NCBI RefSeq assembly: GCF_947623445.1
Contig: NC_135245.1
Span: 1,991,501 to 2,055,500 of the forward strand
Reading direction: 5' to 3'
DNA: 64,000 nt
Origin: Clavelina lepadiformis
Taxonomy: Eukaryota > Chordata > Ascidiacea > Aplousobranchia > Clavelinidae
Each line of letters starts with the position of its first letter. Position 1 is the first letter of the stretch. Both the position numbers and the translations under genes were made by a program. The notes under the pieces were generated by a model. It ran no database searches, was not told where the DNA came from, and saw only the letters and a program-made list of their open reading frames with translations. This document shows positions 415 through 64,000 of the stretch, piece by piece.

Positions 415-1904
415 TTAAAGTTTAAAACAGATGCTCTTGTTTTCAAATTTCTTCTTTCTTTCTGACCACATTGTCTTGAATTTGTTTTCAAAAAAACCGT
501 CCAAGTGTTGGCAGGTTTCACTTATTCCTGGCACCACCATTTCATCGGGCATTCCAATTTTCTGTCGAAGTATTCCAGTTATGAAAACGTCGTCTGTATT
601 TATGCGCTTTGAAGTCAACGACGCTTCCCACAATTGTCTGATGACGCGAACGCTGGTTGTGTAGAATCCACCGAGGCAAAACTTGGGCCAGTTTGGCTCA
701 CTATAATCTTGTAGAGAAATAAAATTTTTGTGTTGTTTGTCCCGTATAGGATGGGATGATTCTCTTGTTTCGTAAGTGCAAATGATTGGAAATTCTGGCC
801 ACTTTTCCTCAGAAATTTTTGCAATGTTTTTATCAACGGCCTCCATTAATTTTACGAGATCAATCATCATATCATCATCACCGCTGGAGTAGAAATATTG
901 ATGAGGAAGCTTGTCTGAGGTCCACCGCATCCCCGATAACGTCTTGAAACCGACATCTCTGAAATCATTGAAGCATTGTTTATCAAATAGAAATCCATGA
1001 TTTAGAAGATGCCAGGTAGAATATATGTGAGTGAAAAATAACACAAATTTCACTCACTGGTATGCGTCCGAAACGTCGACTTGCAATATATCTCCGTATC
1101 TGTCATATTCCTCGTCCAATAAAGCTTGAGTCGTTGCCTTTGCTTGACCAATCACAAAAACAATTTGGAAAGTGGCGCCATCGAGATGGCCTATAGAACC
1201 CCAGGTTTTACGAATCCATTCGCGACGTCTCCCGTAAGATGCAGCCGACTTGATGAAAATAATCATACTCCAAGATATGTTTTTTCCTGCGAGAATATAC
1301 CAAGGTCAGTTTCAACGTCGTTTGATTTAAATATGTGTAATTCAGAATGTTGAAACTGCTTTTTAATTGCAGTATACTTGTCTTTGAGTAATTTATTCAT
1401 ATTAACGTACCAAGTAAACAGCTGCTTTTGTCGTTATTGGAATAAAACATTGGTTCTTTTAAAAACTTGTTCGACTTTGCGGAACTTGAAATTGTGCTAT
1501 AAAGCGATTTATTGGAAGCGTAGGTTTTGTTCAAGGTTGTGACGTTTCTTGATTGCAACGTCATTTCCTTCTGCGTCGCTGCGTTGTTAACGGCTTCGAG
1601 ATTATTTGACCTTTTACAACTTTGGCTGCAAATCAAAAACCATGGCTTATTGTTAAACGCAGCATGTGTAAGAAATATTTTTTACTTTTACACAAGATAT
1701 TGAGTTAAGACAAGTCGATTCATTCGATTGAAACTTAGGTTTCTGTCTTTTGTTTTGAAATTCGAAAATGTTTCCGATATATACTTACTGTTGAAGCTTT
1801 ACATAGCTGGCTTGCATGGTAAGCAGTAACAGAACCCAAATGACAAGCCCAAACAGAACAGCAAAATACTTAAAATTTTTGTTGTGACCGTCAAGAAATA
1901 GCAT
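415..1904 (-). CDS. GT31 beta-1,3-glycosyltransferase G1, 4 exons, 367 aa
   Basis: Exons on the minus strand: 1789-1904, 1411-1625, 1058-1286, 415-958; all introns are GT-AG and phases join exactly to 1104 nt. Exon 1 gives a type II anchor: MLFLDGHNKNF, then a hydrophobic stretch from about residue 12 to 34. Residues 39-110 form a Ser/Asn-rich stem with N-glycosylation sequons (NVT, NKT, NKS). The GT31 domain follows: SMIIFIKSA, RREWIRKTWG (about 130-139), GQ..TT..LLDEEYDRYGDIL, the metal-binding DDD at 214-216, GGFYTTS at 283-289 and TDDVF at 308-312. The family transfers Gal or GlcNAc in beta-1,3 linkage to glycans in the Golgi; donor and acceptor cannot be told from sequence. Retaining the 99-bp intron 3 would stop translation at once after DAYQ. 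Intact and probably functional. Confidence 0.92.
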
Positions 1905-2215
1905 TTCTTTTCAAATTACAAGCTGAAGATATAGGAGTAAGATATATGGAAAAAGTAAAAATAAAATTTATTCGTGATATATTATGAATCGGAGTCGTAA
2001 CTCTTTTCAGAGATGTTCGGTTCGAGTTCGGGTTGGGGCTTAAGTGTGAAACAAAACTGGTTCCAGATTTAGGCAAAAATTCATATTCACACTCTGCCAC
2101 ATTTTCGTCGTAAATTCACTTACACGAATGTGTATGCACTCAGCAGAGCGATTTAAACCTTTGCATAACGCAACAAGTAATGATGATAGTCAGAGAATGG
2201 CATCAAAATATAACC
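1905..2215 (-). promoter_or_regulatory. Candidate 5' leader and core promoter of G1
   Basis: Upstream of the ATG, minus strand, a pyrimidine-rich acceptor ends in TATCTTCAG at 1923-1931, leaving an 18-nt leader (1905-1922). A good donor (CGT|GTAAGT) lies at 2118-2126, so a leader intron 1923-2123 is plausible; alternatively the acceptor receives a trans-spliced leader. GGTTATATTTT (2205-2215) is a TATA-like sequence. The TATA-like sequence recurs at 7143, 26405, 31343, 39221, 44145 and 52011. All of this is inference from sequence. Confidence 0.3.
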
Positions 2216-2256
2216 GAAGAAAAGGGGCAAACGCCCATCACTAAGTTGACTCTTTA

Positions 2257-2759
2257 ATAGGCCTACCATATTTTCATCGCCAAAAAAGAGGACCATTTCG
2301 CCAGCAAGTACAATGCAAATAAAGTTTTACGTTTAAAGAATTTATCACATGTTTTTGGATAATTATACGCATATGCCCAAGTAATGTATTCGGCTTCAGA
2401 ATCATTTCGTCCTTTTCTGAAACAAGGATAGGCCTACTTCTGCCGCAGTTCATCAGAAAACACAGTGTTCCTCTTTGGCATTATTGCTTAGCTTTATTTA
2501 GATTTTATGTTTGTCTAAATTAAAACAATTATAAGAAAAATGATTAGACCTCGTGCTGTCGCTGAAAAGTCATTTGACTTGACTTAGGCCTCATGCCGAA
2601 AAGTCACATAAATATATAATTCTGTTGAAAATTTAAGCAAGAAAACGCAAAATGCAAAAAAGGAGGACATTTGGGCATTTTTCAGTGTCCTCGGAGGACA
2701 ATTCATTTTTCTTTAGAAAAGAGAACAAATCCTCCTAAAAGAGGATATATGGTAGCCCT
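2257..2759. mobile_element. Non-autonomous hAT-like element, family MITE-3 (503 bp)
   Basis: Bounded by an 8-bp target duplication ACTCTTTA (2249-2256 and 2760-2767). Ends are imperfect inverted repeats, AGGCCTACCATAT at the left and ATATGGTAGCCCT at the right. The unoccupied site is seen in the G4 repeat near 15,165 (GAATCTTTAAGAG). No transposase. It sits just upstream of the candidate G1 promoter. Confidence 0.8.
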
Positions 2760-4853: not shown

Positions 4854-6848
4854 TTATAACACGAACTCGTAGATCATGTAATCTTGAGGTTTAAAAAAAA
4901 TGCTCTTGTTTTCAAATTTCTTCTTTCTTTCTGACCATATTGTCTTGAATCTGTTTTCAATAAACCCGCCCAAATGTTGGCAGGTTTCACTTATTCCTGG
5001 CACCACCATTTCATCGGGCATTCCAATTTTCTGTCGAAGTATTCCAGTTATGAAAACGTCGTCTGTATTTATGCGCTTTGAAGTCAACGACGCTTCCCAC
5101 AATTGTCTAATGACGCGAACGCTGGTTGTGTAGAATCCACCGAGGCAATACTTGGGCCAAAATGGCCAACGGTAATCTTTTTCTGAGATATAATTTTTTG
5201 ATATCTTCCCGCGAATAGGCTTGCTTATAACCCAGCTTGTTTCGTAAGTGCAAATGATTGGGAATTCTGGCCACTTTTCCTCAGAAATTTTTGCAATGTT
5301 TTCATCAACGGCCTCTTTTAATTTTACGAGATCAATCATCATATCATCATCACCACTGGAGTAGAAATCTTTGAGGGGAAGCTTATCTGAGGTCCACTGC
5401 ATCCCCGATAACGTCTTGAAACCGACATCTCTGTAATCGTGAAAATGGATTTTGACAAATACGTCTAATGGAGGAGATGAAATTAAAAGGAACACTGAAC
5501 TGAAAAAACTGGTTTCCGTTTTCCCCAAAACCCAACTTTTTAATATGAGTTCATTCCGGATTAACTACTTATGGGTGTAGGTGAGTAGTATACCATACAT
5601 CAGGGGCGGGCAACATACGGCCCGCGGGAACGTATCCGGCCCGCGACGGGATTTTGAGCTCCCCGCAGACAGTTTCCGGTCTTACATGATAAAACAGACA
5701 TGGAGAGATAGCTGAACATTTTTTAGGAAAGGTCAACAAATTTCAAGTTTCTACAGTAAACAATGCAACTGTACGCCACGTTTTGCTGTGACTGTGTGCA
5801 AGAGAAGCCACACCTAGGGAAAATAGGGTTAAAGTTTACATTAAATACGATTTATTCCTTGCATAGGTGTTTAAATACACGATTACTGTTTCGATTCCGG
5901 GATCCGGCCCGCCAAGTACTTCATTTTCTCATATCAGGCCCGCCGACCGAAGAAGTTGCCCGCCCCTGCCATACATCTAAGCACATATTTCACTCACTGG
6001 TATGCGTCCGAAGCGTTGACTTGTAATATGTCTCCAAACCTGTTATATTCCTCGTCCAATAGAACTTGAGTCCTTGCATCCGCTTGACCAATCACAAAAA
6101 CAGTTTGGAAAGTGGCGCCATCGAGATAGCCAATAGAACCCCAGGTGTTACGAATCCATTCGCGACGTCTCCCGTAAGATGCAGCCGACTTGATGAAAAT
6201 AATCATGCTCCAGGATATGTTTTTTCCTGCGAAAATATACCAAGGCCAGTTTCACAATTTCAACCTCATTTGATTTATAAGTGTAATTCAGAATGTTGTA
6301 ACTTGTTTAATTGCAGTAAACTTTTTTTTGAAAGTGTTAGTCATATTAACGTACCAAGTAAACAGCTGCTTTTGTCGTTATTGGAATAAAAATTTGGTTC
6401 TTTTAAAAACTTGTTCGACTTTGCGGAACTAGAAATTGTGCTATAAAGCGATTTATTGGAAGCGTAGGTTTTGTTCAAGGTTGTGACGTTTCTTGATTGC
6501 AACGTCATTTCCTTCTGCGTCGCTGTGTTGTTAACGGTTTCGAGATTATTTGACCTTTTACAACTTTGGCTGCAAATCAAAAGCCATGGCTTATTGTTAA
6601 ACGCAGCATGTCTAAGAAATATTTTTTACTTTAACACAAGGTATTGAGTTAAGACAAGTCGATTCATTCGATTGAAACTTAGGTTTCTGTCTTTTGTTTT
6701 GAAATTCGAAAAAGTTTCCGATATATACTTACTGTTGAAGCTTTACATAGCTGGCTTGCATTGTAAGCAGTAGGATATTCCAAGTCACAAGCCCCAACAC
6801 AACAGCAAAATATTTAAAAATTTTGTTGCGACCGACAAGAAATAGCAT
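4854..6848 (-). CDS. GT31 glycosyltransferase G2, 4 exons, 378 aa
   Basis: Exons: 6733-6848, 6355-6569, 5998-6226, 4854-5430 (1137 nt with stop). The anchor exon begins MLFLVGRNKIFKYF. It keeps RREWIRNTWG, DDD, GGFYTTS and TDDVF. Its variable block is the ETSWVISKPIRGK version rather than the ETRESSHPIRDK version of G1. The usual TAA after FKL/FKP is changed to CAA, so the protein runs on for about 11 extra residues (QDYMIYEFVL). Intron 3 is 567 bp because a 368-bp hAT element is inserted in it; the other introns have ordinary length. Confidence 0.9.
5601..5968. mobile_element. Non-autonomous hAT element, family MITE-2 (368 bp), in G2 intron 3
   Basis: Perfect 14-bp inverted ends CAGGGGCGGGCAAC / GTTGCCCGCCCCTG, flanked by target duplication CCATACAT (5593-5600, 5969-5976). 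The related G4 intron keeps an empty site (ACCATTTATCTAAGC near 13,943). No transposase reading frame. Confidence 0.92.
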
Positions 6849-9822: not shown

Positions 9823-10684
9823 TTAAAGTTTAAAACAGATGCTCTTGTTTTCAAATTTCTTCTTTCTTTCTGACCACATTGTCTTGAATTTGTTTTCAAA
9901 AAACCCGCCCAAGTGTTGGCAGGTTTCACTTATTCCTGGCACCACCATTTCATCGGGCATTCCAATTTTCTGTCGAAGTATTCCAGTTATAAAAACGTCG
10001 TCTGTATTTATGCGCTTTGAAGTCAACGACGCTTCCCACAATTGTGTGATGACGCGAACGCTGGTTGTGTAGAATCCACCGAGGCAAAACTTGGGCCAAA
10101 ATGGCCAACGGTAATCTTTTTCTGAGATATAATTTTTTGATAGCTTCCATCGAATAGGCTTGCTTTCAACCAAGGATGTTTCGAAAGTGCAAATGATTGG
10201 AAATTCTGGCCACTTTTCATCAGAAATTTTTGCAATGTTTTGATCAACGGCCTCCTTTACTTTAACGAGATCAATCATCATATCATCATCACCGCTGGAG
10301 TAGAAATATTGACGGGGAAGCTTGTCTGAGGTCCACTGCATCTCTGATAACGTCCGCAAACCGTCATCTCTGAAGTCGTTAATGCATTGTTTATTAAGTA
10401 GAAATCCATGATTTAGAAGTACAGTATACCACGTGGAATATGTGAATAAAAAATAACACATCTTTCACTCACAGGTATGCGTCTGAAGCGTCGACATGCC
10501 CTATGTCTCCGTATCTGCTATATTTCTCGTCCAATAGAGCTTGAGTAGTTGCCTTTGCTTGACCAATCACAAAAACAGTTTAAAATGTGGCGCCATCGAG
10601 ATAGCCAATAGAACCCCAGGTTTTACGAATCCATTCGCAACGTCTCCCGTAGGATGCAGCCGAATTAATGAAAATATTCATGCT
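9823..10684 (-). pseudogene. GT31 remnant G3, 5' half replaced by the K1 segment
   Basis: Exon 4 (9823-10369) is fully open with DDD and TDDVF and the SLVESKPIRWK version of the variable block. Exon 3 (10473-10684) has an in-frame TAA where ACT TTC CAA has become ACA TTT TAA. It also has RRCEW for RREW and ends abruptly at 10,684. Exons 1 and 2 and the promoter are missing, with K1-associated sequence in their place. It cannot make the normal enzyme. The identical state in G9 and G12 shows that the damage predates the amplification of the block. Confidence 0.88.
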
Positions 10685-10727
10685 GATTATGCTATTCTGA
10701 TCATGCTATTCTGATGAAGAGACGGAT
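10685..10727. repeat. Junction with a 14-bp tandem duplication
   Basis: At the point where GT31 exon 3 homology ends and the BTB-Kelch segment begins, ATGCTATTCTGATC is followed directly by ATGCTATTCTGAT (10689-10715). The same junction occurs at 34,885 and 47,681. It looks like an end-joining scar or a small local duplication. Confidence 0.6.
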
Positions 10728-13230: not shown

Positions 13231-14818
13231 TTAAAGTTTAAAACAGATGCTCTTGTTTTCAAATTTCTTCTTTCTTTCTGACCACATTGTCTTGAATCTG
13301 TTTTCAATAAACCCGCCCAAGTGTTGGCAGGTTTCACTTATTCCTGGCACCACCATTTCATCGGGCATTCCAATTTTCTGTCGAAGTATTCCAGTTATGA
13401 AAACGTCGTCTGTATTTATGCGCTTTGAAGTCAACGACGCTTCCCACAATTGTGTGATGACGCGAACGCTGGTTGTGTAGAATCCACCTTTGCAAAACTT
13501 GGGCCAAAATGGCCAACGGTAATCTTTTTCTGAGATATAATTTTTTGATAGCTTCCATCGAATAGGCTTGCTTATAACCCAGCTTGTTTCGTATGTGCAA
13601 ATGATTGGAAATTCTGGCCACTTTTTCTCAGAAACTTTTGCTATGTTTTGATCAACGGCCTCTTTTAATTTTACGAGATCAATCATCATATCATCATCAT
13701 ATTTGAGAATCATAAAAATATTTGAGGGAAAGCTTGTCTGAGGTCCACTGCATCCCCGATAACGTCTTGAAACCGACATCTCTGTAATCGTGAAAATGGA
13801 TTTTGACAAATACGTCTAATGGAGGAGATGAATTTAAAAGGAACACTGAACTGAAAAAACTGGTTTCCCTTTTCCCCAAAACCCATTTTTTAGTATGAGT
13901 TCAGTCACGATTAACAACTTATGGGTGTAGGTGACTAGTACACCATTTATCTAAGCACATATTTCACTCACGGGTATGCGTCCGAAGCGTCGACTTGTAA
14001 TATGTCTCCATATATGTTATGTTCCTCGTCCAATAGAGCTTGAGTACTTTCCTGTGCTTGACCAATCACAAAAACAGTTTGGAAAGTGGCGCCATCGAGA
14101 TGGCCTATAGAACCCCAGGCTTTACGAATCCATTCGCGTCGTCTCTCGTAGGATGCAGCCGACTTGATGAAAATAATCATGCTCCAAGATATGTTTCTTT
14201 CTGCGAAAATTTACTAAGGTCAGTTTCAACGTCGTTTGACTAAAATAAGTGTAATTCAGAATGTTGAAACTGCTTTTTAATTGCAGTATACTTGTCTTTG
14301 AAAGATTTATTCATATTAACGTACCAAGTAAACAGCTGCTTTTGTCGTTCTTGGAATAAAAATTTGGTTCTGTTAAAAAATTGGTCGATTTTGCAAAACT
14401 AGAAATTGTGCTATAAAGCGATTTATCGGAAGCGTTGGTTTTGTTCGAGGCTGTGACGTTTCTTGATTGCAACGTCATTTCCTTCTGTGTCGCTGCGGTG
14501 TTAATGGCTTCGGGATTATTTGACCTTTTACAACTTTGGCTGCAAATCAAAAGCCATGGCTTATTGTTAAACGACGCATGTGTAAGAAATAATTTACACT
14601 TTTACACAAGATATTGAGTTAAGAGAAGTCGATTCATTCGATTGAAACTTAGGTTAATGTCTTTTGTTTTGAAAGTCAAAAATGCTTCCGATATATACTT
14701 ACTGTTGCAGCTTTACATAGCTGGCTTGCATGGTAAACAGTAACAGAGCCCAAGGCACAAGCCCCAACAGAACTGCAAAATACTTAAAATTTTTGTTGTG
14801 ACCGTCAAGAAATAGCAT
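13231..14818 (-). pseudogene. GT31 pseudogene G4, frameshift before the DDD motif
   Basis: The four-exon layout is preserved: 14703-14818, 14325-14539, 13972-14200, 13231-13781, with good splice sites. In exon 4, just before the DDD codons, nine bases are replaced by thirteen. The frame entering as KYFYDSQI then meets stops, while the DDDMMIDL frame continues in another phase. Everything after that point (variable block ETSWVISKPIRWK, GGFYTTS, TDDVF, C-terminus) is open. G5 and G14 share the lesion, so it was inherited. Unless an alternative splice skips the site, the product would lack the catalytic core. Confidence 0.82.
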
Positions 14819-16982: not shown

Positions 16983-18571
16983 TTAAAGTTTAAAAAAAAT
17001 CCTCTTGTTTTCAAATTTCTTCTTTCTTTCTGACCACATGCTCTTGAATTTATTTATGTCTAATCCGCCCAAGTGTTGGCAGGTTTCATTTATTCCTGGC
17101 ACCACCTTTTCATCGGGCATTCCGATTTTTCTGTCGAAGTATTCCAGTTATGAAAACGTCGTCTGTATTTATGCGCTTTGAAGTCAACGACGCTTCCCAC
17201 AATTGTGTGATGACGCGAACGCTGGTTGTGTAGAATCCATCGAGGCAATACTTGGGCCAAAATGGCCAACGGTAAATTTTTTCTGAGATATAATTTTTTG
17301 ATAGCTTTCATCGAATAGGCTTGCTTATAACCCAGCTTGTTTCGTATGTGCAAATGATTGGAAATTCTGGCCACTTTTTCTCAGAAACTTTTGCAATGTT
17401 TTGATCAACGGCCTCTTTTAGTTTTACGAGATCAATCATCATATCATCATCATATTTGAGAATCATAAAAATATTTGAGGGAAAGCTTGTCTGAGGTCCA
17501 CTGCATCCCCGATAACGTCTTGAAACCGACATCTCTGTAATCGTGAAAATGGATTTTGACAAATACGTCTAATGGAGGAGATGAATTTAAAAGGAACACT
17601 GAACTGAAAAAACTGGTTTCCCTTTTCCCCAAAACCCATTTTTTAGTATGAGTTCAGTCACGATTAACAACTTATGGGTGTAGGTGACTAGTACACCATT
17701 TATCTAAGCACATATTTCACTCACTGGTATGCGTTCGAAGCGTCGACTTGTAATATGTCTCCATATATGTTATGTTCCTCGTCCAATAGAGCTTGAGTAC
17801 TTTCCTGTGCTTGACCAATCACAAAAACAGTTTGGAAAGTGGCGCCATCGAGATAGCCAATAGAACCCCAGGCTTTACGAATCCATTCGCGTCGTCTCTC
17901 GTAGGATGCAGCCGACTTGATGAAAATAATCATGCTCCAAGATATGTTTCTTTCTGCGAAAATTTACTAAGGTCAGTTTCAACGTCGTTTGACTAAAATA
18001 AGTGTAATTCAGAATGTTGAAACTGCTTTTTAATTGCAGTATACTTGTCTTTGAAAGATTTATTCATATTAACGTACCAAGTAAACAGCTGCTTTTGTCG
18101 TTATTGGAATAAAAATTTGGTTCTGTTAAAAAATTGGTCGATTTTGCAAAACTAGAAATTGTGCTATAAAGCGATTTATCGGAAGCGTAGGTTTTGTTCG
18201 AGGCTGTGACGTTTCTTGATTGCAACGTCATTTCCTTCTGTGTCGCTGCGGTGTTAATGGCTTCGGGATTATTTGACCTTTTACAACTTTGGCTGCAAAT
18301 CAAAAGCCATGGCTTATTGTTAAACGACGCATGTGTAAGAAATAATTTACACTTTTACACAAGATATTGAGTTAAGAGAAGTCGATTCATTCGATTGAAA
18401 CTTAGGTTAATGTCTTTTTTTTTGAAAGTCAAAAATGCTTCCGATATATACTTACTGTTGCAGCTTTACATAGCTGGCTTGCATGGTAAACAGTAACAGA
18501 GCCCAAGGCACAAGCCCCAACAGAACTGCAAAATACTTAAAATGTTTGTTGTGACCGTCAAGAAATAGCAT
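16983..18571 (-). pseudogene. GT31 pseudogene G5, several lesions
   Basis: Exons 18456-18571, 18078-18292 and 17725-17953 are intact. Exon 4 (16983-17534) shares the pre-DDD frameshift of G4. It also has TGG to TGA directly after KPIR in the variable block, and one extra T in the codons after GMPDE-equivalent sequence near 17,130. The last two lesions are not in G4, so G5 has decayed further. G14 shares the extra T. Confidence 0.88.
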
Positions 18572-21255: not shown

Positions 21256-22734
21256 TTAAGGTTTAAAACAGATGCTCTTGTTTTCAAATTTCCTCTTTCT
21301 TTCTGACCACATTGTCTTGAATCTGTTTTCAATAAACCCGCCCAAGTGTTGGCAGGTTTCACTTATTCCTGGCACCACCATTTCATCGGGCATTCCAATT
21401 TTCTGTCGAAGTATTCCAGTTATGAAAACGTCGTCTGTATTTATGCGCTTTGAAGTCAACGACGCTTCCCACAATTGTCTGATGACGCGAACGCTGGTTG
21501 TGTAGAATCCACCGAGGCAAAACTTGGGCCAGTTTGGCTCACTATAATCTTGTACAGAAATAAAATTTTTGTGTCGTTTATCCCGTATAGGATGGGATGA
21601 CTCTCTTGTTTGGTAAGTGCAAATGATTGGAAATTCTGGCCACTTTTCCTCAGAAGTTTTTGCAATGTTCTTATCAACGGCCTCCTTTAGTTTTACGAGA
21701 TCAATCATCATATCATCGTCACCGCTGGAGTAGAAATATTGACGGGGAAGCTTGTCTGAGGTCCACCGCATCCCCGATAACGTTTTCAAACCAACATTTC
21801 TGAAATCGTTAAAGCATTGTTTATCAAATAGAAATCCATGATTTAGAAGATGCCAGGTAGAATAATTGTAAGTGAAAAATAACACATCTTTCACTCACAG
21901 GTACGCGTCCGAAACGTCGACTTGCAATATATCTCCGTATCTGTCATATTCCTCGTCGAGTACTTTCCTGTGCTTGACCAATCACAAAAACAATTTGGAA
22001 AGTGGCGCCATCGAGATAGCCAATAGAACCCCAGGTTTTACGAATCCATTCGCGACGTATCCCGTAAGATGCAGCCGACTTGATGAAAATAATCATGCTC
22101 CAGGATATGTTTTTTCCTGCGAAAATATACCAAGGTCAGTTTCAACGTCGTTTGATTTAAATAAGTGTAATTCAGAATGTTGAAACTGCTTTTTAATTGC
22201 AGTATACTTGTCTTTAAAAGATTTATTCATATTAACGTACCAAGTAAACAGCTGCTTTTGTCGTTATTGGAATAAAAATTTGGTTCTTTTAAAAACTTGT
22301 TCGACTTTGCGGAACTTGAAATTGTGCTATAAAGCGATTTATTGGAAGCGTAGGTTTTGTTCGAGGTTGTGACGTTTCTTGATTGCAACGTCATTTCCTT
22401 CTGCGTCGCTGTGTTGTTAACGGCTTCGAGATTATTTGACCTTTTACAACTTTGGCTGCAAATCAAAAACCATGGCTTATTGTTAAACGCAGCATGTGTA
22501 AGAAATATTTTTTACTTTTACACAAGATATTGAGTTAAGATAAGTCGATTCATTCGATTGAAACTTAGGTTACTGTCTTTTGTTTTCAAAGTTGAAAATG
22601 TTTCTGACATATACTTACTGTTGAAGCTTTACATAGCTGGCTTGCATGGTAAGCAGTAACAGAACCCAAATGACAAGCCCAAACAGAACAGCAAAATACT
22701 TAAAAATTTTGTTGTGACCGTCAAGAAATAGCAT
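21256..22734 (-). pseudogene. GT31 pseudogene G6, 11-bp deletion in exon 3
   Basis: Exons: 22619-22734, 22241-22455, 21899-22116, 21256-21799. Exon 4 is fully open, with the RESSHPIRDK-type variable block (QTRESSHPIRDK), DDD and TDDVF. Exon 3 is 218 bp where intact copies have 229: eleven bases are missing in the TQALLDEE codons near 21,957, giving a frameshift and an early TGA. Sequence on one side of the gap matches the G1 type and on the other side the G4 type. The gap may be a faulty recombination joint. Confidence 0.85.
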
Positions 22735-26104: not shown

Positions 26105-26456
26105 TTCTTTTCAAATTACAAGCTGAAGATATAGGAGTAAGATATATGGAAAAAGTAAAAATAAAATTTATTCGTGATATATTATGAATCGGAGTCGTAA
26201 CTCTTTTCAGAGATGTTCGGTTCGAGTTCGGGTTGGGGCTTAAGTGTGAAACAAAACTGGTTCCAGATTTAGGCAAAAATTCATATTCACACTCTGCCAC
26301 ATTTTCGTCGTAAATTCACTTACACGAATGTGTATGCACTCAGCAGAGCGATTTAAACCTTTGCATAACGCAACAAGTAATGATGATAGTCAGAGAATGG
26401 CATCAAAATATAACCGAAGAAAAGGGGCAAACGCCCATCACTAAGTTGACTCTTTA

Positions 26457-28979: not shown

Positions 28980-29053
28980 CCCTAAACCGTACACATAAAA
29001 TATAAGAATAAGTGAAGCCATATAACAACAGAGCTCAAAAGAAATTGTGTCTG

Positions 29054-41904: not shown

Positions 41905-43850
41905 TTAAGGTTTAAAACAGATGCTCTTGTTTTCAAATTTCATCTTTCTTTCTGACCATATTGTCTTGAATCTGTTTTCAATAAACCCGCCCAAATGTTG
42001 GCAGGTTTCACTTATTCCTGGCACCACCATTTCATCGGGCATTCCAATTTTCTGTCGAAGTATTCCAGTTATGAAAACGTCGTCTGTATTTATGCGCTTT
42101 GAAGTCAACGACGCTTCCCACAATTGTGTGATGACGCGAACGCTGGTTGTGTAGAATCCACCGAGGCAATACTTGGGCCAAAATGGCCAACGGTTATCTT
42201 TTTCTGAGATATAATTTTTTGATATCTTCCCGCGAATAGGCTTGCTTATAACCCAGCTTGTTTCGTAAGTGCAAATGATTGGGAATTCTGGCCACTTTTC
42301 CACAGAAATTTTTGCAATGTTTTCATCAACGGCCTCTTTTAATTTTACGAGATCAATCATCATATCATCATCACCACTGGAGTAGAAATCTTTGAGGGGA
42401 AGCTTATCTGAGGTCCACTGCATCCCCGATAACGTCTTGAAACCGACATCTCTGTAATCGTGAAAATGCATTTTGACAAATACGTCTAATGGAGGAGATG
42501 AAATTAAAAGGAACACTGAACTGAAAAAACTGGTTTCCGTTTTCCCCAAAACCCAACTTTTTAATATGAGTTCATTCCGGATTTACTACTTATGGGTGTA
42601 GGTGAGTAGTATACCATACATCAGGGGCGGGCAACATACGGCCCGCGACGGGATTTTGAGCTCCCCGCAGACAGTTTCCGGTCTTACATGATAAAACAGA
42701 CATGGAGAGATAGCTGAACATTTTTTAGGAAAGGTCAACAAATTTCAAGTTTCTACAGTAAACAATGCAACTGTACGCCACGTTTTGCTGTGACTGTGTG
42801 CAAGATAAGCCACACCTAGGGAAAATAGGGTTAAAGTTTACATTAAATACGATTTATTCCTTGCATAGGTGTTTAAATACACGATTACTGTTTCGATTCC
42901 GGGATCCGGCCCGCCAAGTACTTCATTTTCTCATATCAGGCCCGCCGACCGAAGAAGTTGCCCGCCCCTGCCATACATCTAAGCACATATTTCACTCACT
43001 GGTATGCGTCCGAAGCGTTGACTTGTAATATGTCTCCAAACCTGTTATATTCCTCGTCCAATAGAACTTGAGTCCTTGCATCCGCTTGACCAATCACAAA
43101 AACAGTTTGGAAAGTGGCGCCATCGAGATAGCCTATAGAACCCCAGGTGTTACGAATCCATTCGCGACGTCTCCCGTAAGATGCAGCCGACTTGATGAAA
43201 ATAATCATGCTCCAGGATATGTTTTTTCCTGCGAAAATATACCAAGGCCAGTTTCACAATTTCAACCTCATTTGATTTATAAGTGTAATTCAGAATGTTG
43301 TAACTTGTTTAATTGCAGTAAACTTTTTTTTGAAAGTGTTAGTCATATTAACGTACCAAGTAAACAGCTGCTTTTGTCGTTATTGGAATAAAAATTTGGT
43401 TCTTTTAAAAACTTGTTCGACTTTGCGGAACTAGAAATTGTGCTATAAAGCGATTTATTGGAAGCGTAGGTTTTGTTCAAGGTTGTGACGTTTCTTGATT
43501 GCAACGTCATTTCCTTCTGCGTCGCTGTGTTGTTAACGGTTTCGAGATTATTTGACCTTTTACAACTTTGGCTGCAAATCAAAAGCCATGGCTTATTGTT
43601 AAACGACGCATGTCTAAGAAATATTTTTTACTTTAACACAAGGTATTGAGTTAAGACAAGTCGATTCATTCGATTGAAACTTAGGTTTCTGTCTTTTGTT
43701 TTGAAATTCGAAAAAGTTTCCGATATATACTTACTGTTGAAGCTTTACATAGCTGGCTTGCATTGTAAGCAGTAGGATATTCCAAGTCACAAGCCCCAAC
43801 ACAACAGCAAAATATTTAAAAATTTTGTTGCGACCGACAAGAAATAGCAT
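41905..43850 (-). CDS. GT31 glycosyltransferase G11, 368 aa
   Basis: Exons: 43735-43850, 43357-43571, 43000-43228, 41905-42451 (1107 nt). It is the U3 counterpart of G2 and G8, but it ends at the ordinary TAA (SICFKP stop), so the extension in G2/G8 is private to U1/U2. It keeps DDD, TDDVF and the SWVISKPIRGK variable block, with KDNRWPF where others have KDYRWPF. MITE-2 is in intron 3. Confidence 0.9.
42622..42970. mobile_element. MITE-2 copy in G11 intron 3 (349 bp)
   Basis: Same ends and CCATACAT flanks as at 5601 but 19 bp shorter. One GGCCCGCG direct repeat and the bases between it and the next copy are gone, a typical slippage deletion. Confidence 0.92.
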
Positions 43851-46821: not shown

Positions 46822-47680
46822 TTAAAGTTTAAAACAGATGCTCTTGTTTTCAAATTTCATCTTTCTTTCTGACCACATTGTCTTGAATTTGTTTTCAAAA
46901 AACCCGCCCAAGTGTTGGCAGGTTTCACTTATTCCTGGCACCACCATTTCATCGGGCATTCCAATTTTCTGTCGAAGTATTCCAGTTATAAAAACGTCGT
47001 CTGTATTTATGCGCTTTGAAGTCAACGACGCTTCCCACAATTGTCTGATGACGCGAACGCTGGTTGTATAGAATCCACCGAGGCAAAACTTGGGCCAGTT
47101 TGGCTCACTATAATCTTGTACAGAAATAAAATTTTTGTCTTGTTTGTCCCGTATAGGATGGGATGATTCTGTTGTTTCGTAAGTGCAAATGATTGGAAAT
47201 TCTGGCCACTTTTCATCAGAAATTTTTGCAATGTTTTGATCAATGGCCTCTTTTACTTTTACGAGATCAATCATCATATCATCATCACCGCTGGAGTAGA
47301 AATATTGACGGGGAAGCTTGTCTGAGGTCCACTGCATCTCTGATAACGTCTGCAAACCGTCATCTCTGAAGTCGTTAATGCATTGTTTATTAAGTAGAAA
47401 TCCATGATTTAGAAGTACAGTATACCACGTGGAATATGTGAATGAAAAATAACACATCTTTCACTCACAGGTATGCGTCTGAAGCGTCGACATGCCCTAT
47501 GTCTCCGTATCTGCTATATTCCTCGTCCAATAGAGCTTGAGTAGTTGCCTTTGCTTGACCAATCACAAAAACAGTTTAAAATGTGGCGCCATCGAGATAG
47601 CCAATAGAACCCCAGGTTTTACGAATCCATTCGCAACGTCACCCGTAGGATGCAGCCGAATTAATGAAAATATTCATGCT
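46822..47680 (-). pseudogene. GT31 remnant G12, with a swapped variable block
   Basis: U3 counterpart of G3 and G9: exon 4 46822-47365, exon 3 47469-47680 with the same TAA and the same truncation at the BTB-Kelch junction. Its variable block is TTESSHPIRDKQDK (G1/G15 type) where G3 and G9 have SLVESKPIRWK. Exon 4 is 3 bp shorter as a result. The flanking parts still match G3 and G9, so a patch of sequence was replaced inside this copy. Confidence 0.85.
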
Positions 47681-47723
47681 GATTATGCTATTCTGATCAT
47701 GCTATTCTGATGAAGAGACGGAT

Positions 47724-50224: not shown

Positions 50225-51717
50225 TTAAAGTTTAAAACAGATGCTCTTGTTTTCAAATTTCTTCTTTCTTTCTGACCACATTGTCTTGAATCTGTTTTCA
50301 ATAAACCCGCCCAAGTGTTGGCAGGTTTCACTTATTCCTGGCACCACCATTTCATCGGGCATTCCAATTTTCTGTCGAAGTATTCCAGTTATGAAAACGT
50401 CGTCTGTATTTATGCGCTTTGAAGTCAACGACGCTTCCCACAATTGTGTGATGACGCGAACGCTGGTTGTGTAGTATCCACCTTTGCAAAACTTGGGCCA
50501 AAATGGCCAACGGTAATCTTTTTCTGAGATATAATTTTTTGATAGCTTCCATCGAATAGGCTTGCTTTCAACCAAGGATGTTTCGAAAGTGCAAATGATT
50601 GGAAATTCTGGCCACTTTTCCTCAGAAGTTTTTGCAATGTTTTGATCAACGGCCTCCTTTACTTTAACGAGATCAATCATCATATCATCATCACCACTGG
50701 AGTAGAAATATTGACGGGGAAGCTTATCTAAGGTCCACTGCATCCCCGATAACGTCTTCAAACCGACATCTCTGAAATCATTAAAGCATTGTTTATGAAA
50801 TAGAAATCCATGATTTAGAAGAAGCCAGGTGGAATATGTGAATAAAAAATAACACATCTTTCTCTCACTGGTATGCGTCCGAAGCCTCGACTTGCAATAT
50901 ATCTCCGTATCTGTTATATTCCTCGTCCAATAAAGCTTGAGTAGTTGCCTTTGCTTGACCAATCACAAAAACAATTTGGAAAGTGGCGCCATCCAGATAG
51001 CCAATAGAACCCCAGGTGTTACGAATCCATTCGCGACGTATCCCGTAAGATGCTGCCGACTTGATGAAAATAATCATGCTCCAAGATATTTTTTTTCCTG
51101 CGAGAATATACCAAGGTCAGTTTCAACGTCGTTTGATGCAAATAAGTGTAATTCAGAATGTTGTAACTTGTTTAATTGCAGTATACCTGTTTTTGTAAGT
51201 TTTAGTCATGAATATTAACGTACCAGGAAAACAGCTGCTTTTGTCGTTCTTAAAATAAAACATTGGTTCTTTTAAGATCTTGATCGACTTTGCGGAACTA
51301 GAAATTGTGCTATAAAGCGATTTATCGGAAGTGTCGGTTTTGTTCGAGGATGTGACGTTTCTTGATTGCAACGTCATTTCCTTCTGCGTCGCTGCGGTTT
51401 TAATGGCTTCTGGACTATTTGACCTTTTACAACTTTGGCTGAAAATCAAAAGCCATGGCTTATTGTTAAACGCAGCATGTGTAAGAAATATTTTTTACTT
51501 TTGCACAAGATATTGAGTTAAGAGAAATCGATTTATTCGATTGAAACTTAGGTTTCTGTGTTTTGTTCTGAAAGTCGAAAGTGTTTCCGATATATACTTA
51601 CTGTTGATGCTTTACATAGCTGGCTTGCATGGTAAGCAGTAAGAGATTCCAAGTCACAAACCCCAATACAACAGCAAAATATTTAAAAATTTTGTTGCGA
51701 CCGTCAAGAAATAGCAT
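50225..51717 (-). CDS. GT31 glycosyltransferase G13, 368 aa
   Basis: Exons: 51602-51717, 51224-51438, 50869-51097, 50225-50771. All open and in phase. The exon 4 variable block is SLVESKPIRWK (G3 type), followed by KGGYYTTS where most copies have LGGFYTTS. The stem differs from the others (SNKTDTSDK, KNDKSSCF). Exon 3 has GIRREWIRNTWG. The intron 3 donor is GTGAGA. Intact; the most divergent open copy within the recent part of the array. Confidence 0.9.
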
Positions 51718-54020: not shown

Positions 54021-55608
54021 TTAAAGTTTAAAAAAAATCCTCTTGTTTTCAAATTTCCTCTTTCTTTCTGTCCACATGCTCTTGAATTTATTTATGTCTA
54101 ATCCGCCCAAGTGTTGGCAGGTTTCATTTATTCCTGGCACCACCATTTCATCGGGCATTCCGATTTTTCTGTCGAAGTATTCCAGTTATGAAAACGTCGT
54201 CTGTATTTATGCGCTTTGAAGTCAACGACGCTTCCCACATTTGTCTGATGACCCGAACGCTGGTTGTGTAGAATCCATCGAGGCAATACTTGGGCCAAAA
54301 TGGCCAACGGTAATCTTTTTCTGAGATATAATTTTTTGATAGCTTCCATCGAATAGGCTTGCTTATAACCCAGCTTGTTTCGTATGTGCAAATGATTGGG
54401 AATTCTGGCCACTTTTTCTCAGAAACTTTTGCTATGTTTTGATCAACGGCCTCTTTTAATTTTACGAGATCATATCATCATCATATTTGAGTATCATAAA
54501 AATATTTGAGGAAAAGCTTGTCTGAGGTCCACTGCGTCCCCGATAACGTCTTGAAACCGACATCTCTGTAATCGTGAAAATGGATTTTGACAAATACGTC
54601 TAACGGAGGAGATGAATTTAAAAGGAACACTGAACTGAAAAAACTGGTTTCCCTTTTCCCCAAAACCCATTTTTTAGTATGAGTTCAGTCACGATTAACA
54701 ACTTATGGGTGTAGGTGACTAGTATACCATTTATCTAAGCACATATTTCACTCACTGGTACGCGTCCGAAGCCTCGACTTGCAATATGTATCCATATATG
54801 TTATGTTCCTCGTCCAATAGAGCTTGAGTACTTTCCTGTGCTTGACCAATCACAAAAACAATTTGGAAAGTGGCGCCATCGAGATAGCCTATAGAACCCC
54901 AGGTTTTACGAATCCATTCGCGACGTCTCCCGTAAGATGCAGCCGACTTGATGAAAATAATCATACTCCAAGATATGTTTTTTCCTGCGAAAATATACCA
55001 AGGTCAGTTTCAACGTCGTTTGATTTAAATAAGTGTAATTCAGAATGTTGAAACTGCTTTTTAATTGCAGTATACTTGTCTTTGAAAGATTTATTCATAT
55101 TAACGTACCAAGTAAACAGCTGCTTTTGTCGTTATTGGAATAAATATTTGGTTCTGTTAAGAAATTGGTCGACTTTGCGGAACTTGAAATTGTGCTATAA
55201 AGCGATTTATCGGAAGCGTCGGTTTTGTTCGAGGTTGTGACGTTTCTTGATTGCAACGTCATTTCCTTCTGTGTCGCTGCGGTGTTAATGGCTTCGGGAT
55301 TATTTGACCTTTTACAACTTTGGCTGCAAATCAAAAACCATGGCTTATTGTTAAACGCAGCATGTCTAAGAAATATTTTTCACTTTTACACAAGATATTG
55401 AGTTAAGAGAAGTCGATTCATTCGATTGAAACTTAGGTTACTGTCTTTTGTTTTCAAAGTCGAAAATGTTTCTGATAGTTACAGGTACTTACTGATGAAG
55501 CTTTACATAGCTGGCTTGCATGGTAAGCAGTAACAGAGCCCAAGGCACAAGCCCCAACAGAACTGCAAAATACTTAAAATGTTGGTTGTGACCGTCAAGA
55601 AATAGCAT
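54021..55608 (-). pseudogene. GT31 pseudogene G14
   Basis: Exons: 55493-55608, 55109-55323, 54756-54984, 54021-54565. It shares with G4/G5 the pre-DDD frameshift and with G5 the extra T after the TDDVF region near 54,171. It also lacks six bases in the MMIDL codons next to DDD. Exons 1-3 are open. Its arrangement with a MITE-4 upstream also matches the G5 repeat. Confidence 0.85.
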
Positions 55609-57756: not shown

Positions 57757-60335
57757 TTAAATTTTAAAACAGATGCTCTTGTTTTCAAATTTCTTCTTTC
57801 TTTCTGACCATATTGTCTTGAATCTGTTTTCAATAAACCCGCCCAAGTGTTGGCAGGTTTCACTTATTCCTGGCACCACCATTTCATCGGGCATTCCGAT
57901 TTTCTGTCGAAGTATTCCAGTTATGAAAACGTCGTCTGTATTTATGCGCTTTGAAGTCAACGACGCTTCCCACAATTGTCTGATGACGCGAACGCTGGTT
58001 GTATAGAATCCACCGAGGCAAAACTTGGGCCAGTTTGGCTCACTATAATCTTGTACAGAAATAAAATTTTTGTCTTGTTTGTCCCGTATAGGATGCGCTG
58101 ATTCTGTTGTTTCGTAAGTGCAAATGATTGGAAATTCTGGCCACTTTTCCTCAGAAATTTTTGCAATGTTTTTATCAACGGCCTCCTTGACTTTAACGAG
58201 ATCAATCATCATATCATCATCACCGCTGGAGTAGAAATATTGACGGGGAAGCTTGTCTGAGGTCCACTGCATCCCCGATAACGTCTTGAAACCGACATCT
58301 CTGAAATCGTGAAAATAGCTTTTGATAAATAAAAAGAATTATATTTAAAAATCGGTAACGTCAACACTTGACATTCCGTTGCCACCTAACAAACACCGCC
58401 CTTTAGCATAAGGGTTGCCATACGTCAGGATTTTCCATGTCAGGGACTTTATTGTTCAAATCTGCGTCAGGGATAAATATTAAAAAGTGCTTAAAAGTCC
58501 GGGTTTTTGAACATTGTATTTCATGAAAGTTAACTGGCAAGTATTTCACCATAAGAGTTTGTTTAGTGCCAAAGATTAAACTTTGTTATTGTTTTGCTGT
58601 TGAAAATGGCAAAGCGAAAATGTAAATTTACTGACGAGATGCAGGCAAGCTATGAAGAGACCCTTTTGACTTATGAGGATATCTTAACTTAATTTACCTG
58701 ATGAATTATTGTACACTATTGTTGTGTGTGTTTAGAATACTTTAACCTTTTTCCGGCCGAAAGGTTTTAATATTACATTAGAAATAGCTTACAAGAAAAG
58801 GTTTCTATTATAGGTGTTGTACACTTTCTCAATATTACTAATAACCAAGAACAAAAGTAATACTACTGCTTACAAGATGGCTATTGTCTATTAAAAAGAA
58901 AGTAGTTGGACTAAGCAAATGTGGCAATTCTGTACTTTTTCCCCTCTGTGACATTTATGCTGTCTTGCAGAAAAAATAAGCGTTTGGTTTGGTAGGATGT
59001 ACGAACATATACTGTAAAAAGTGGTGTAGCGCCTGTTTATTGTCGCAAAAGTTGGTCATTGAGACAGACAGGAATTTGGCTTTTTCTGATATGGTAGCCC
59101 TAGTTTAGCATCGACCCACTCAGAATCTACAAAATAGCAGATTTTCTCAACCAGGCTTGATAACTTGCCTTTTAGGGGGCGCGAAACTTGAGAAAAAAAA
59201 TGGCCTAAGTACAGTAGTTGAATCTTAAAGTGTTGTCAGTCGAATGGTGCACATCAGTCAACTGGAGCATAGTTGAGTCTCAGCTTAAGTTAAAACGTTT
59301 TGTCTTTTTGGAGACAATTGGGGTGCGACAACGCATGAAAGGATTTTTAGGGAAGCGAGGAAAAATGGTTGGAACCCTTAACCTAAAGCATAGAAGTATA
59401 TGTGAATAAACAAAAAGCGCTTATTCAAGCACGTATTTCTCTTACAGATATGCATCTGAAGCGTCGACTTGCAATATGTCTCCATATCTACTATGTTCCT
59501 CGTCCAATAGAGCTTGGGTTTTCGCATCTGTTTGACCAGTTACAAAAATAGTTTGAAAGGTGACACCATCAAGATAGTCAATAGAACCCCAGGTTTTACG
59601 AATCCATTCGCGACGTCTCCCGTAGGATGCAGCCGACTTGATGAAAATAATCATGCTCCAAGATATGTTTTTTCCTTCAAAAATAAACCAGATTCAGTTT
59701 AAGCATGGTTAACAAAAAAGTTTGATTTAATTTTAGAACATTGCAATGTTTCAAACAACATATTTATATCTTTGCAAATTTGCAAAATGTTTTTGATTTT
59801 TTTATTTAGGCTACATCAGCATACCTAATAAACAGCTGTTAATTTCTCTGTTGGAAAAAAATGTTGGCTCCTGCAGAAATTCGTAAGATTTCGATGAAAT
59901 TGAAGTTGTTTCAGAAGAGAAACCAATTGGAGCATCGGTTGTGTTCGAATATGAGATGTCTCTTGCTTGCAACGTCATTTCTCTCTGCGTTGCTGGCGTA
60001 TTAATGGCAGCGTTTTTCTGGCGCGCTTTGCTACTTTGGCTAGAGTTAAAAATCCACGGATTATCTTCAAACGTAGCAGAAGAAACAAACATGTTTTCTC
60101 TGATTCTTTTTGTTGACATAGTGATAAGTTATGACTAGTGGATACACAGTTTGTGTAAATGAAATTCACCGCTTTTTAATTTTTTATTATTTGCTATCGA
60201 GAAGTTTTGCAATACTCACTGGTGGCGGTTAGTTCGTCTGACTTGCATGGTAATCACCAGAAAACTCCAAACCACAAGCCCCAACACAATCGCAAAAAAC
60301 TTTAGTTTTTTGTTGCGACCAACAAAAAATGTCAT
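57757..60335 (-). CDS. GT31 glycosyltransferase G15, chimeric copy, 367 aa
   Basis: Exons: 60220-60335, 59825-60039, 59446-59674, 57757-58300 (1104 nt), with introns in the same places and phases as G1. The anchor reads MTFFVGRNKKLKFF; the stem (SSQSSKARQ, DISYSNTTDAP) and exon 3 (TFQTIFVTGQTDAKTQ) are clearly diverged from all other copies. Exon 4 and the 3' flank are almost identical to the recent copies, with a TTESAHPIRDKQDK block nearly matching G12. The change falls in intron 3 near 58,320-58,340. Intron 3 is 1,145 bp and holds a hAT remnant. Intact and probably functional. Confidence 0.88.
58410..59103 (+). mobile_element. Internally deleted hAT transposon in G15 intron 3 (694 bp)
   Basis: Target duplication TTTAGCAT at 58402-58409 and 59104-59111. 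The ends are AAGGGTTGCCATACG and TATGGTAGCCCTAG. At 58606-58692 a short frame begins MAKRKCKFTDEMQ and stops after 28 codons. This resembles the start of BED/hAT-type transposases, though the match is from memory of the family. The rest of the transposase is missing. End similarity suggests it is related to MITE-3 and MITE-4. Confidence 0.75.
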
Positions 60336-62006: not shown

Positions 62007-62186
62007 TTAAAGATTGAAACAGGAATTTTGATTTTCGATTTTCTTTATTTGTTCTGACCAAAATATCTGGAATTTATTTTCTTTTAATCCGCCCCCCAAG
62101 TGTTGGCAGGTTTCACTTATTCCTGGAACCACCATTTCCTCGGGCATTCCAATTTTCTGTCGAAGTATTCCAGTTATGAAAACGTC
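62007..62186 (-). pseudogene. GT31 fragment G16 (3' end of exon 4 only)
   Basis: Homology begins at the stop codon (62007-62009) and covers the C-terminus up to the VFITGILRQKIGMP codons, then breaks off at 62,186 in unrelated sequence. The tail is diverged but the GMP-EMVVPGISETCQHL part is close to the other copies. No exons 1-3 nearby. Confidence 0.8.
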
Positions 62187-63742
62187 ATACCCTTGTAATA
62201 ATTATACTTTCTGGAGTGACTGTGCCTTACTTCTTTGTAGGTTTTTCACTTTCTGCTCAATCTTCTGTATGTTCCTAAACCGTGAAAGTATGTAAAACGC
62301 GATCACTCACAACCACTGAAAGTGATTTTACGAAACTATTTGTTGGAAGCCGAAAGCGGAAGACTCAAAGAATCCGCCTAATCCATTTGTTACGCAATAC
62401 TTTCGACACATGCCGATATATAGTATACCTTGGACTCGGAAAACACACAAATGAAAGAACACTTTCTCGTTAAATTTGCGACTTAACCAGTTCACCCTCT
62501 TACACCTTGGGCTAAAATTTCAATAAAATAAATAACATTGTGTGTACTCATGAAACATTTCTGCATGGCCCAAGATTAAACATGAAATGCCGTTAGTTCA
62601 AGTTTGCTTATGGCTATGGCCAAATCACCTAATGGGTGTCCAGGGCATTTTGTTTGGTAAATTGTCAGATTTACAATATATAGAACGAAGTAGAACTGAC
62701 TCAGCTTTGCATTTTGCCAAGATAATCTCAACGCACAACTTAAGTAAAGTTTCCCATACACACTTTCGAAGTGGTTTGTTTTCAAAAAAAAGGAAATGGT
62801 TTGGTGCGTGGATTTTGGGGTACAGCATAGGTACATAATTAGACAATCAAATTAACTTACGTGGTGAAAAAAATTTGCAATCTTCAATAAACTGTTAACG
62901 GAAGTGAAATTTGTACAAACGGAAAACGGTCGTTGATACAAACGTTTCGCAAACACTTGCCTTGACTTCTTTTCTAGAGAATAACTTGAATGTTATGAAT
63001 CGACTCGAGTCACTAGTTGAAAAGAATCTTGCCTCGACTCGGTCATTTTTGAATAGATTACATTAAGGTAAACGATTTTTCTTTTTTTGTCCAAAAAATC
63101 AAAATATAACTAGAAATAAAGTTCATATGTTTACGAACCAGGATGAGGCCGCCAAATAAAGAAAATATTTTAAGTTTTCAAACGTTTTTTTTTACGAAAG
63201 CGGTATTTTTCGCTTTCTGTGTGAAAAGTGACTTTAGATATCAATTGGCTTAACCTGACATGTCACTTCGTCCAAAAATATCCATCTGTCCAGAGTCTTA
63301 TAAAGGTAACTTGACTTGTCATTCCAGTTAGATTCTTTGGTCATTCAAGTTAGATTCTGTAAGCCAGTCACTCTCTGAAAGTCCAAATATTTGTTTAGAT
63401 ATATTTGCTATTTGAATGCTTAAATGAAAAGCCGTACAGGGGACGTGCAAATATTTGTTCTTGCCAAGAAATTCTCGGCAAAGATTATATCAAAGCAATA
63501 ACAATATGCGCAATCACTTATCACAAGTTTAAACCGCAACAACAATTAAACAAAAGGTTGAAAACAATAAGTAGGTAATACTCTGCAGCCAGGCAAGTGA
63601 CCAAGTCTACAACTGCTGTTACACCAACATTAAAAATGTGTATAGGCATCTCGAAAGCAAAGACTTTACCGGTTTGACGCAATCAAACAATTTCAGTAAA
63701 TAATAGAAAAACGAATATACTGATAGCAGGTAAATGGAATCC
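62187..63742. other. Spacer between G16 and G17
   Basis: Unique AT-rich sequence with short frames on both strands (for example 62,282-62,473 and 62,576-62,838) that resemble nothing I know, and a short CTCGAGT-rich patch near 63,000. No supported gene. Confidence 0.5.
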
Positions 63743-64000
63743 TTAATGGTTGAAACAGGTATTTTTAGTTTCGATTTTCTTCATTTGTTTTGACCAAAAA
63801 GTACTGAATCTATTTTCCTTAAACCCGTCCAAGTGTTGGCAGGTTTCACTTATTCCTGGCACCACCATTTCATCGGGCATTCCAATTTTCTGTCGAAGTA
63901 TTCCAGTTATGAAAACGTCGTCTGTATTTATGCGCTTTGAAGTCAACGACGCTTCCCACAATTGTCTGATGACGCGAACGCTGGTTGTGTAGAATCCACC
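63743..64000 (-). CDS. GT31 glycosyltransferase G17, 3' part of exon 4, cut by the window edge
   Basis: The stop is at 63743-63745. The open frame reads back from a diverged tail (KENRFSTFWSKQMKK, NTCFNH) through GISETCQHL, TDDVF and GGFYTT to the edge. From about 63,825 to 64,000 the DNA appears identical to G1, whereas the 80 bp before it is only about 70% alike. The rest of the gene lies outside the window, so its integrity is unknown. Confidence 0.8.
   Translation of the reverse strand, partial: GGFYTTSVRVIRQLWEASLTSKRINTDDVFITGILRQKIGMPDEMVVPGISETCQHLDGFKENRFSTFWSKQMKKIETKNTCFNH

What the first reader, a model, noticed from the sequence alone, without database searches (positions are those of the whole stretch)
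415..64000. Glycosyltransferase array with an exchangeable variable block between DDD and TDDVF
Across the GT31 copies, about 33 residues (G1 residues 250-282, between WPEFPIICT and GGFYTTS) occur in at least three versions: ESSHPIRDK...FIS..DYSEPNW, SWVISKPIRGK/WK...DYRWPFW and SLVESKPIRWK...DYRWPFW. The DNA on both sides is close to invariant, even in silent positions. Versions do not follow the relationships of the surrounding gene. In GT31 enzymes this region lies in the catalytic fold between the metal site and the later acidic motif and may shape acceptor choice. The pattern fits diversification of enzyme specificity by cassette conversion, as in recognition gene arrays. Function is inference.
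Basis: partly seen in the sequence, partly recalled or inferred. Interest (0 to 1): 0.8.

Follow-up and report, generated by a model that had tools for sequence, protein, structure and literature searches.

The report
Sugar-transferase array with swapped acceptor loops
A sea squirt carries about forty similar copies of a sugar-adding enzyme gene in a row, roughly half of them apparently broken, and the stretch thought to grip the target sugar comes in a few old, very different versions that have sometimes been copied between otherwise matching genes, which may change what the enzymes act on.

Summary
A ~29-codon block occurs in versions A, B (B1-B3) and C in the array, and D in a lone inverted copy ~95 kb away. 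Two neighbouring units differ by a median 1%; of 128 windows of 100 bp only the block window reaches 8%. One truncated copy with block B1 is 98.4% identical to one with block A outside the block, and its block equals that of another gene class (0 of 87 differences). Block and non-block trees reject each other. The block aligns to HV2, the main acceptor-binding loop of B3GNT2. A second cluster 17.6 Mb away shows the same island. Corrections: silent sites diverge in the block too, so dN does not exceed dS; versions mostly follow gene class, with about three extra changes; 22 of 42 copies are defective or unproven, including both parties of the cleanest swap; conversion also affects other parts of the gene. 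Best reading: gene conversion homogenises exon 4 and occasionally moves whole loop versions. Changed acceptor specificity is plausible, untested.

The parts
415..1904 (-). copy c08, open 4-exon GT31 gene (window exons 1904-1789, 1625-1411, 1286-1058, 958-415); 367 aa; block version A
   Evidence: Galactosyl_T Pfam hit
691..777 (-). block A in c08
5160..5249 (-). block B2 in c09 (open, C-terminus extended)
10099..10188 (-). block B1 in c10 (defective: exons 1-2 not found, stop in exon 3); one party of the cleanest swap (the other, c04, lies outside the window)
13507..13596 (-). block B3 in c11 (defective)
17260..17349 (-). block B3 in c12 (defective, in-frame stop in block)
21532..21618 (-). 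block A in c13 (exon 3 frameshift)
24891..24977 (-). block A in c14 (open)
29360..29449 (-). block B2 in c15 (open, C-terminus extended)
34299..34388 (-). block B1 in c16 (defective); the only 100-bp window of 8% or more among 128 between two neighbouring units
37707..37793 (-). block A in c17 (open)
42181..42270 (-). block B2 in c18 (open)
47098..47184 (-). block A in c19 (defective); unit partner of c16
50501..50590 (-). block B1 in c20 (open); identical over the 87 compared bases to the block of c10
54298..54387 (-). block B3 in c21 (defective)
58033..58119 (-). block A in c22 (open), with exon-4 flanks close to those of the B2 gene c24
63743..64000 (-). 3' end of exon 4 of copy c23 (open; its block, version A, lies beyond the window edge)

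Best explanation
This is a tandem array of GT31 (beta-1,3-galactosyltransferase-like) genes and gene remnants in concerted evolution. Unit duplication multiplies copies, and ectopic gene conversion makes much of exon 4 nearly uniform. Within exon 4 the loop between the DxD region and the glycine-rich strand (HV2, the main acceptor-binding loop in the solved relative B3GNT2) survives as a few versions older than the common ancestry of the flanks, and short conversion tracts (139-177 bp in the one tract measured) move whole versions between gene classes. Shown here: the versions, the island, the tract, the conflicting histories, the alignment to HV2. Inferred: that conversion is the mechanism, and that version exchange alters which acceptor sugar, rather than which donor, is used (by hand alignment the equivalent of UDP-contacting Lys197 of B3GALT5 is constant while the Lys185/Glu188 equivalents vary).
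For: Neighbouring 12.8-kb units: median divergence 1%, 124 of 12,570 bases outside the two block windows; of 128 windows of 100 bp only the block window reaches 8% (26 of 93). c10 vs c04: 103 mismatches over 4,701 bp, 36 of them in the two 100-bp block windows, 1.6% elsewhere; block of c10 has 0 of 87 differences to c01, c05 and c20; 41 consecutive donor-like sites of 57 informative ones, 0 of 100,000 shuffles as long. c26 and c41, different hosts, share block C (1 of 87) while the A-type copies compared differ from c26 by 18-22 of 86-87. 23 copies: block rejects the joint flank tree (delta lnL 217.7), whereas 5' and 3' flank data both accept it (p-AU 0.14, 0.20). 15 open genes: one non-block tree accepted by exons 1-3 (0.06), joint flanks (0.09), 5' flank (0.19) and 3' flank (0.15), rejected by the block (delta lnL 75, p-AU 1e-5). 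Site incompatibility: within block 0.05, block-5' 0.43, block-3' 0.38, 5'-3' 0.15 (frequency-adjusted). Second cluster at C6 19.64-19.67 Mb: 3 pairs with the same island; 32 of 34 island pairs sit at HV2. Structural placement.
Against: The cleanest swap is between copies without found exons 1-2 and with a stop in exon 3, and c26 has a stop in exon 4, so selection on function is not shown. Among open genes only one version change above the minimum is needed. Exchange is not confined to the loop: each flank rejects the other's own best tree (delta lnL 137 and 105), exons 1-3 reject the best exon-4 flank tree and the reverse (delta lnL 352 and 64), two of 34 island pairs lie between DDD and WPEFP, and silent divergence also peaks at the end of exon 3 (pS 0.31-0.34). 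The structure prediction failed (pLDDT 31). No expression, activity or population data.
Confidence: 0.7

Rival explanations
1. Neutral island: conversion homogenises exon 4, and the loop escapes only because once diverged by ~40% and a codon indel it no longer pairs; whole-block transfers are rare by-products. (This shares the conversion step with the best explanation and differs on why the versions persist, so the odds overlap.)
For: Silent as well as coding sites are old in the block (dS 0.50 against 0.045-0.15); dN/dS 0.52; exchange is seen in defective copies; A and B differ by a codon indel.
Against: Islands sit at HV2 in two separate clusters (32 of 34 pairs, but pairs are not independent); versions A, B and C are each carried by open genes.
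Confidence: 0.4
2. Local hypermutation of the loop.
For: Block is the most divergent stretch of exon 4; within version A it has more changes per site than the 3' flank (17 in 84 against 6 in 189).
Against: Within version A the 5' flank changes at least as fast (49 in 183); identical blocks sit in different hosts.
Confidence: 0.03
3. Assembly or haplotype-mixing artefact in a repeat array.
For: Units with at most 1 mismatch per 2 kb over 12 kb are hard to assemble; the deposited assembly is not fully phased (PMC10884593, passages).
Against: No N in 200 kb; published QV 67.4; the pattern recurs in a lone copy and in another cluster; versions A, B1, B2, B3 and C each occur in two or more array copies.
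Confidence: 0.06
4. Exchange is driven by diversifying selection on acceptor specificity, for example of surface glycans met by microbes or by other colonies.
For: The exchanged unit coincides with the acceptor loop; recent changes in it are 24 nonsynonymous to 4 synonymous against 55.5 to 40.5 in flanks.
Against: No dN greater than dS (binomial p 0.34); no function known; many carriers are defective.
Confidence: 0.3

Closest known systems
GT31 beta-1,3-galactosyl/N-acetylglucosaminyltransferases (B3GALT5, B3GNT2)
   Same: Pfam Galactosyl_T, DxD, DD motif, PIR (PHR in B3GNT2) and a Lys in the HV2 loop
   Different: By hand alignment the acceptor-stacking Trp198 of B3GALT5 is Asn in all versions seen; HV2 versions are exchanged between paralogues
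ASSET, accelerated segment switch in exons (snake venom proteins; PMC2711939, abstract and outline seen)
   Same: Short exon segments near the target-binding surface are replaced on a conserved background
   Different: There the new segments are described as unrelated sequences; here versions are alignable and shared between tandem paralogues, and the clearest event has a matching donor class
Fut2/Sec1 gene conversion in leporids (PMC4398370, passages)
   Same: Gene conversion between glycosyltransferase paralogues, linked to glycan diversity
   Different: Three genes; conversion homogenises stretches of the catalytic domain rather than exchanging one loop
Trypanosomatid GT31-type UGT families (PMC5853035, passages)
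   Same: Arrayed GT31-family genes with recombination among paralogues
   Different: One to three breakpoints reported; no loop cassette described in the passages seen
UGT1/GCNT2 variable-exon clusters (PMC1885805, passages)
   Same: Hypervariable acceptor-binding regions in a tandem glycosyltransferase cluster (shown there for UGT)
   Different: Variation by separate first exons; gene conversion reported as not prevalent there

Membership tests
GT31 / Galactosyl_T (PF01762) | Profile match above the curated cut-off | tested here: met
   81.4 and 74.3 bits against 23 for two window ORFs
GT31 / Galactosyl_T (PF01762) | DxD metal motif and acidic catalytic-base motif | tested here: met
   DDD and TDDVF invariant in the 10 and 9 window copies aligned; roles taken from PMC7948508 and PMC11969544
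GT31 / Galactosyl_T (PF01762) | Type II membrane anchor | tested here: inconclusive
   Hydrophobic stretch near the N-terminus of c08 read by eye; no predictor run
GT31 / Galactosyl_T (PF01762) | Beta-1,3-glycosyl transfer | not testable with these tools
   needs enzyme assay
Gene-conversion (concerted evolution) array | Segments with conflicting histories inside one exon | tested here: met
   AU tests
Gene-conversion (concerted evolution) array | Copied tract identical to a donor class, host flanks on both sides | tested here: met
   c10 tract
Recognition-type cassette array (for example avian Ig, VSG; recalled) | Pseudogene donors feeding expressed genes | tested here: inconclusive
   22 of 42 copies are not open under the model used and carry A, B1, B3 and C; direction of transfer not resolved
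Recognition-type cassette array (for example avian Ig, VSG; recalled) | Programmed or somatic conversion, selection for diversity | not testable with these tools
   one genome, no RNA or population data
ASSET | Segment changed to an unrelated sequence (wording of the abstract of PMC2711939) | tested here: not met
   Versions A, B, C and D align through the block and share PIR, Lys-Asn and the closing Trp-Pro-Lys

The most novel reading that the evidence does not exclude
The array, defective copies included, is a germline library of acceptor-loop cassettes: recurrent short conversion at the HV2 loop, with islands at that loop in at least two separate GT31 clusters of this animal, re-specifies a set of glycosyltransferases and keeps old loop versions in circulation, so that individuals or species differ in surface glycans for recognition or defence.
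Probability: 0.12. Interest if true: 0.85.

Novelty: new variant of a known kind. Interest (0 to 1): 0.55.

Why it matters
It gives a natural series of enzymes that differ most strongly in the acceptor loop, so the idea that GT-A enzymes gain new acceptors through their variable loops (argued from structures in PMC7948508, passages) could be tested with natural pairs and simple chimeras. It also shows a specificity segment being kept and moved while differences elsewhere are largely erased.

Tried and rejected
Structure prediction of exon 4 with 9 window sequences gave pLDDT 31 and was not used. A GENECONV-like run test is confounded by uneven divergence along the exon and is not relied on; the compatibility and tree tests are. 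A loose island scan returned 632 of 861 pairs, only 196 of them at the block, about the share expected by position (0.32), because distant genes enter; it says nothing for the block. The strict version is used. In one search the rows of c26 were shifted because the aligner dropped a stop sign; they were redone and the values for c26 are discarded. A cassette-exon idea was dropped because the block lies inside one continuous open exon. Relatives in other species could not be searched with the collections used here. Novelty searches: (1 of 1 listed; 3 of 3; 12 of 2,441; 15 of 58; 15 of 41; 10 of 294; 8 of 10), search listings unless a paper is cited as read; no listed title or abstract start describes a GT31 loop exchanged between tandem paralogues in a tunicate; most subscription papers are not held.
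Full report
Where it is. The window is bases 1,991,501-2,055,500 of contig C6 of a 209-Mb genome. Contig lengths of 28.78, 25.73, 20.77 and 19.51 Mb for C1, C3, C6 and C8 match chromosomes 1, 3, 6 and 8 of Clavelina lepadiformis, a colonial sea squirt (28.79, 25.74, 20.77, 19.51; table seen in PMC10884593, passages); the species name is inferred from that match.

What it is. On the minus strand lies a run of GT31 genes. A Pfam search of the genome gave 151 exon-level Galactosyl_T matches (a lower bound), many of them on C6 at 1.965-2.136 Mb. Extraction by blastn gave 42 exon-4 copies, here c01-c42 in order of position, plus two short fragments left out, in a 200-kb stretch without N. The window holds complete blocks of 15 of them, c08-c22. 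The first copy has four exons with GT/AG borders and a 367-aa product; 18 of 42 copies are fully open by the same model and c09 and c15 are open with a longer C-terminus, so 20 of 42. Among the other 22, six (c04, c10, c16, c19, c29, c35) have no exon 1-2 match and a stop in exon 3, others have frameshifts or stops, c02 has lost most of exon 4, and c42 is open but with a GC donor. Versions among the 20 open copies: A 9, B2 7, B1 3, C 1; among the 22 others: A 10, B3 7, B1 3, C 1, unreadable 1.

The block is an island. Among 22 distinct codon-aligned sequences (from 31 of 42 copies, after dropping 7 that did not align by codon, the frameshifted c11, c30, c36, and c26) dS is 0.15 in the 5' flank, 0.50 in the block, 0.045 in the 3' flank; dN is 0.049, 0.26, 0.011. 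A versus B1 has dS 0.87, A versus C 0.37, and the D version of the lone copy at C6:2,232,586 is at or near saturation (13.7 of 17.8 silent sites against A, 14.5 of 18.0 against B1, dS 2.1 against C) although its flanks are at dS 0.05 and 0.16 to c08. Within version A the block has 17 inferred changes in 84 sites, the 5' flank 49 in 183, the 3' flank 6 in 189: faster than the 3' flank, not faster than the 5' flank.

The block moves. Two neighbouring units of the window (24,501-37,300 and 12,816 bases further on) differ by a median 1% and by 124 of 12,570 bases outside the two windows that hold the block; of 128 windows of 100 bp only the one with the block of c16 against c19 reaches 8% (26 of 93; the next highest has 7). 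Windows of 8% or more also occur at both junctions and beyond the unit, where c17 is set against c20 (28 of 95 at the block). c10 and c04 are a like pair: 4,701 aligned bases with 103 mismatches, 36 of them in the two block windows and 1.6% elsewhere. The block of c10 equals those of c01, c05 and c20 (0 of 87), while its 5' flank is closer to c04 (4 of 183 against 10 of 183 to c05). The tract, with c05 as donor stand-in, has 41 donor-like sites in a row, spans at least 139 and at most 177 alignment columns, and runs about 50 bp past the block on the 3' side. Version C is shared by c26 and c41, whose C-termini differ at 22 of 90 sites. Among open genes, c22 (A) and c24 (B2) differ by 2.8% and 1.5% in the exon-4 flanks and 41% in the block, though by 25% in exons 1-3.

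Tests. With 23 distinct exon-4 sequences (from 32 copies; c02 was left out of the alignment and nine copies with frameshifts in or at the start of exon 4 were dropped) one tree for both flanks is accepted by each flank and rejected by the block, and the block tree is rejected by both flanks (5000 replicates, flagged as few by the program). With 15 distinct open genes (from the 18 counted open) and 10,000 replicates a single non-block tree is accepted by exons 1-3 and by both flanks and rejected by the block. Results that cut the other way: each flank rejects the other flank's own best tree, and exons 1-3 and the exon-4 flanks reject each other's best trees, so the rest of the gene is mosaic too and only a compromise tree fits it; and version labels are far from random on these trees (5 changes against a shuffled mean of 9.0; 3 against 6.0). 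Most copies thus inherited their version; about three changes beyond the minimum are needed among all copies, one among open genes.

How general it is. I compared 12 open array copies with 30 other exon-4-type GT31 matches, chosen by me from the list and fetched (not every match in the genome). Of 101 pairs with neighbours of at most 12% divergence on both sides somewhere, 34 have an island of 25% or more; 32 lie at this loop: 29 in the array and 3 among copies at C6:19.64-19.67 Mb. The other two lie just upstream. Pairs are not independent; the count of clusters with the island at the loop is two, plus the lone copy. Some families show other patterns: at C6:1.45 Mb block and 3' flank are nearly identical and the 5' flank is not; at C5:18.1 Mb divergence falls steadily from 5' to 3'; the C3:4.5 Mb trio and one C3:25.1 Mb pair show no clear silent-site island.

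Structure and function. Profile search against solved structures finds B3GALT5 (8zwp, E 7e-12) and B3GNT2. In the printed alignments the block covers the HV2 loop. PMC7948508 (passages) states that this loop supplies five of seven acceptor-binding residues of B3GNT2; PMC11969544 (passages) places Lys185, Glu188, Lys197, Trp198, Tyr210, Phe213 and Ser215 of B3GALT5 in the corresponding stretch. By hand from that alignment, Lys197 is Lys and Trp198 is Asn in all versions, while positions 185-189 and 206-209 differ between versions. I infer that versions share donor use and differ in the acceptor beyond the first sugar. This is a prediction. My own structure model failed.

Verdict. A clean case of segmental exchange at an enzyme's specificity loop, best read as gene conversion. 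The kind (conversion of a functional segment) is known; its occurrence at the GT31 acceptor loop in a tunicate array was not found in the searches named in Tried and rejected. Whether selection keeps it going is open. Daphnia offers a precedent for glycosyltransferase clusters as candidates at a parasite-resistance locus (PMC5340410, passages), which is only a lead.

Noticed in passing
10701-12377, 34901-36577, 47697-49373 (+): Three near-identical single-ORF genes of 558 aa on the opposite strand are carried along in the repeated units; the first matches BTB, BACK and Kelch.
   Followed up: partly
window 1 to about 12,000 versus the same plus 24,200: Segmental duplication with at most 1 mismatch per 2 kb over 12 kb, then loss of register: very recent unit duplication.
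   Followed up: partly
c08 residues 166-180 (end of exon 3) in 15 open genes: A second silent-site peak (pS 0.31-0.34) with little amino-acid change; another possible conversion boundary. With all 15 genes residues 91-105 are also high (0.36).
   Followed up: no
L025 484-8 (-) and 4288-4713 (+), C6 about 1.45 Mb: Two inverted GT31 copies identical in the acceptor loop and nearly so downstream, but with silent differences of 0.57 upstream: conversion with one edge just before the loop.
   Followed up: partly
c09 and c15 (window 4854-5564, 29054-29764): C-terminus extended by about 10 residues beyond the usual stop position.
   Followed up: no
L049-L052, C3 about 25.1 Mb: GT31-like copies with a changed metal motif (TDDN, VDEN where the array has GDDD), perhaps inactive.
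   Followed up: no
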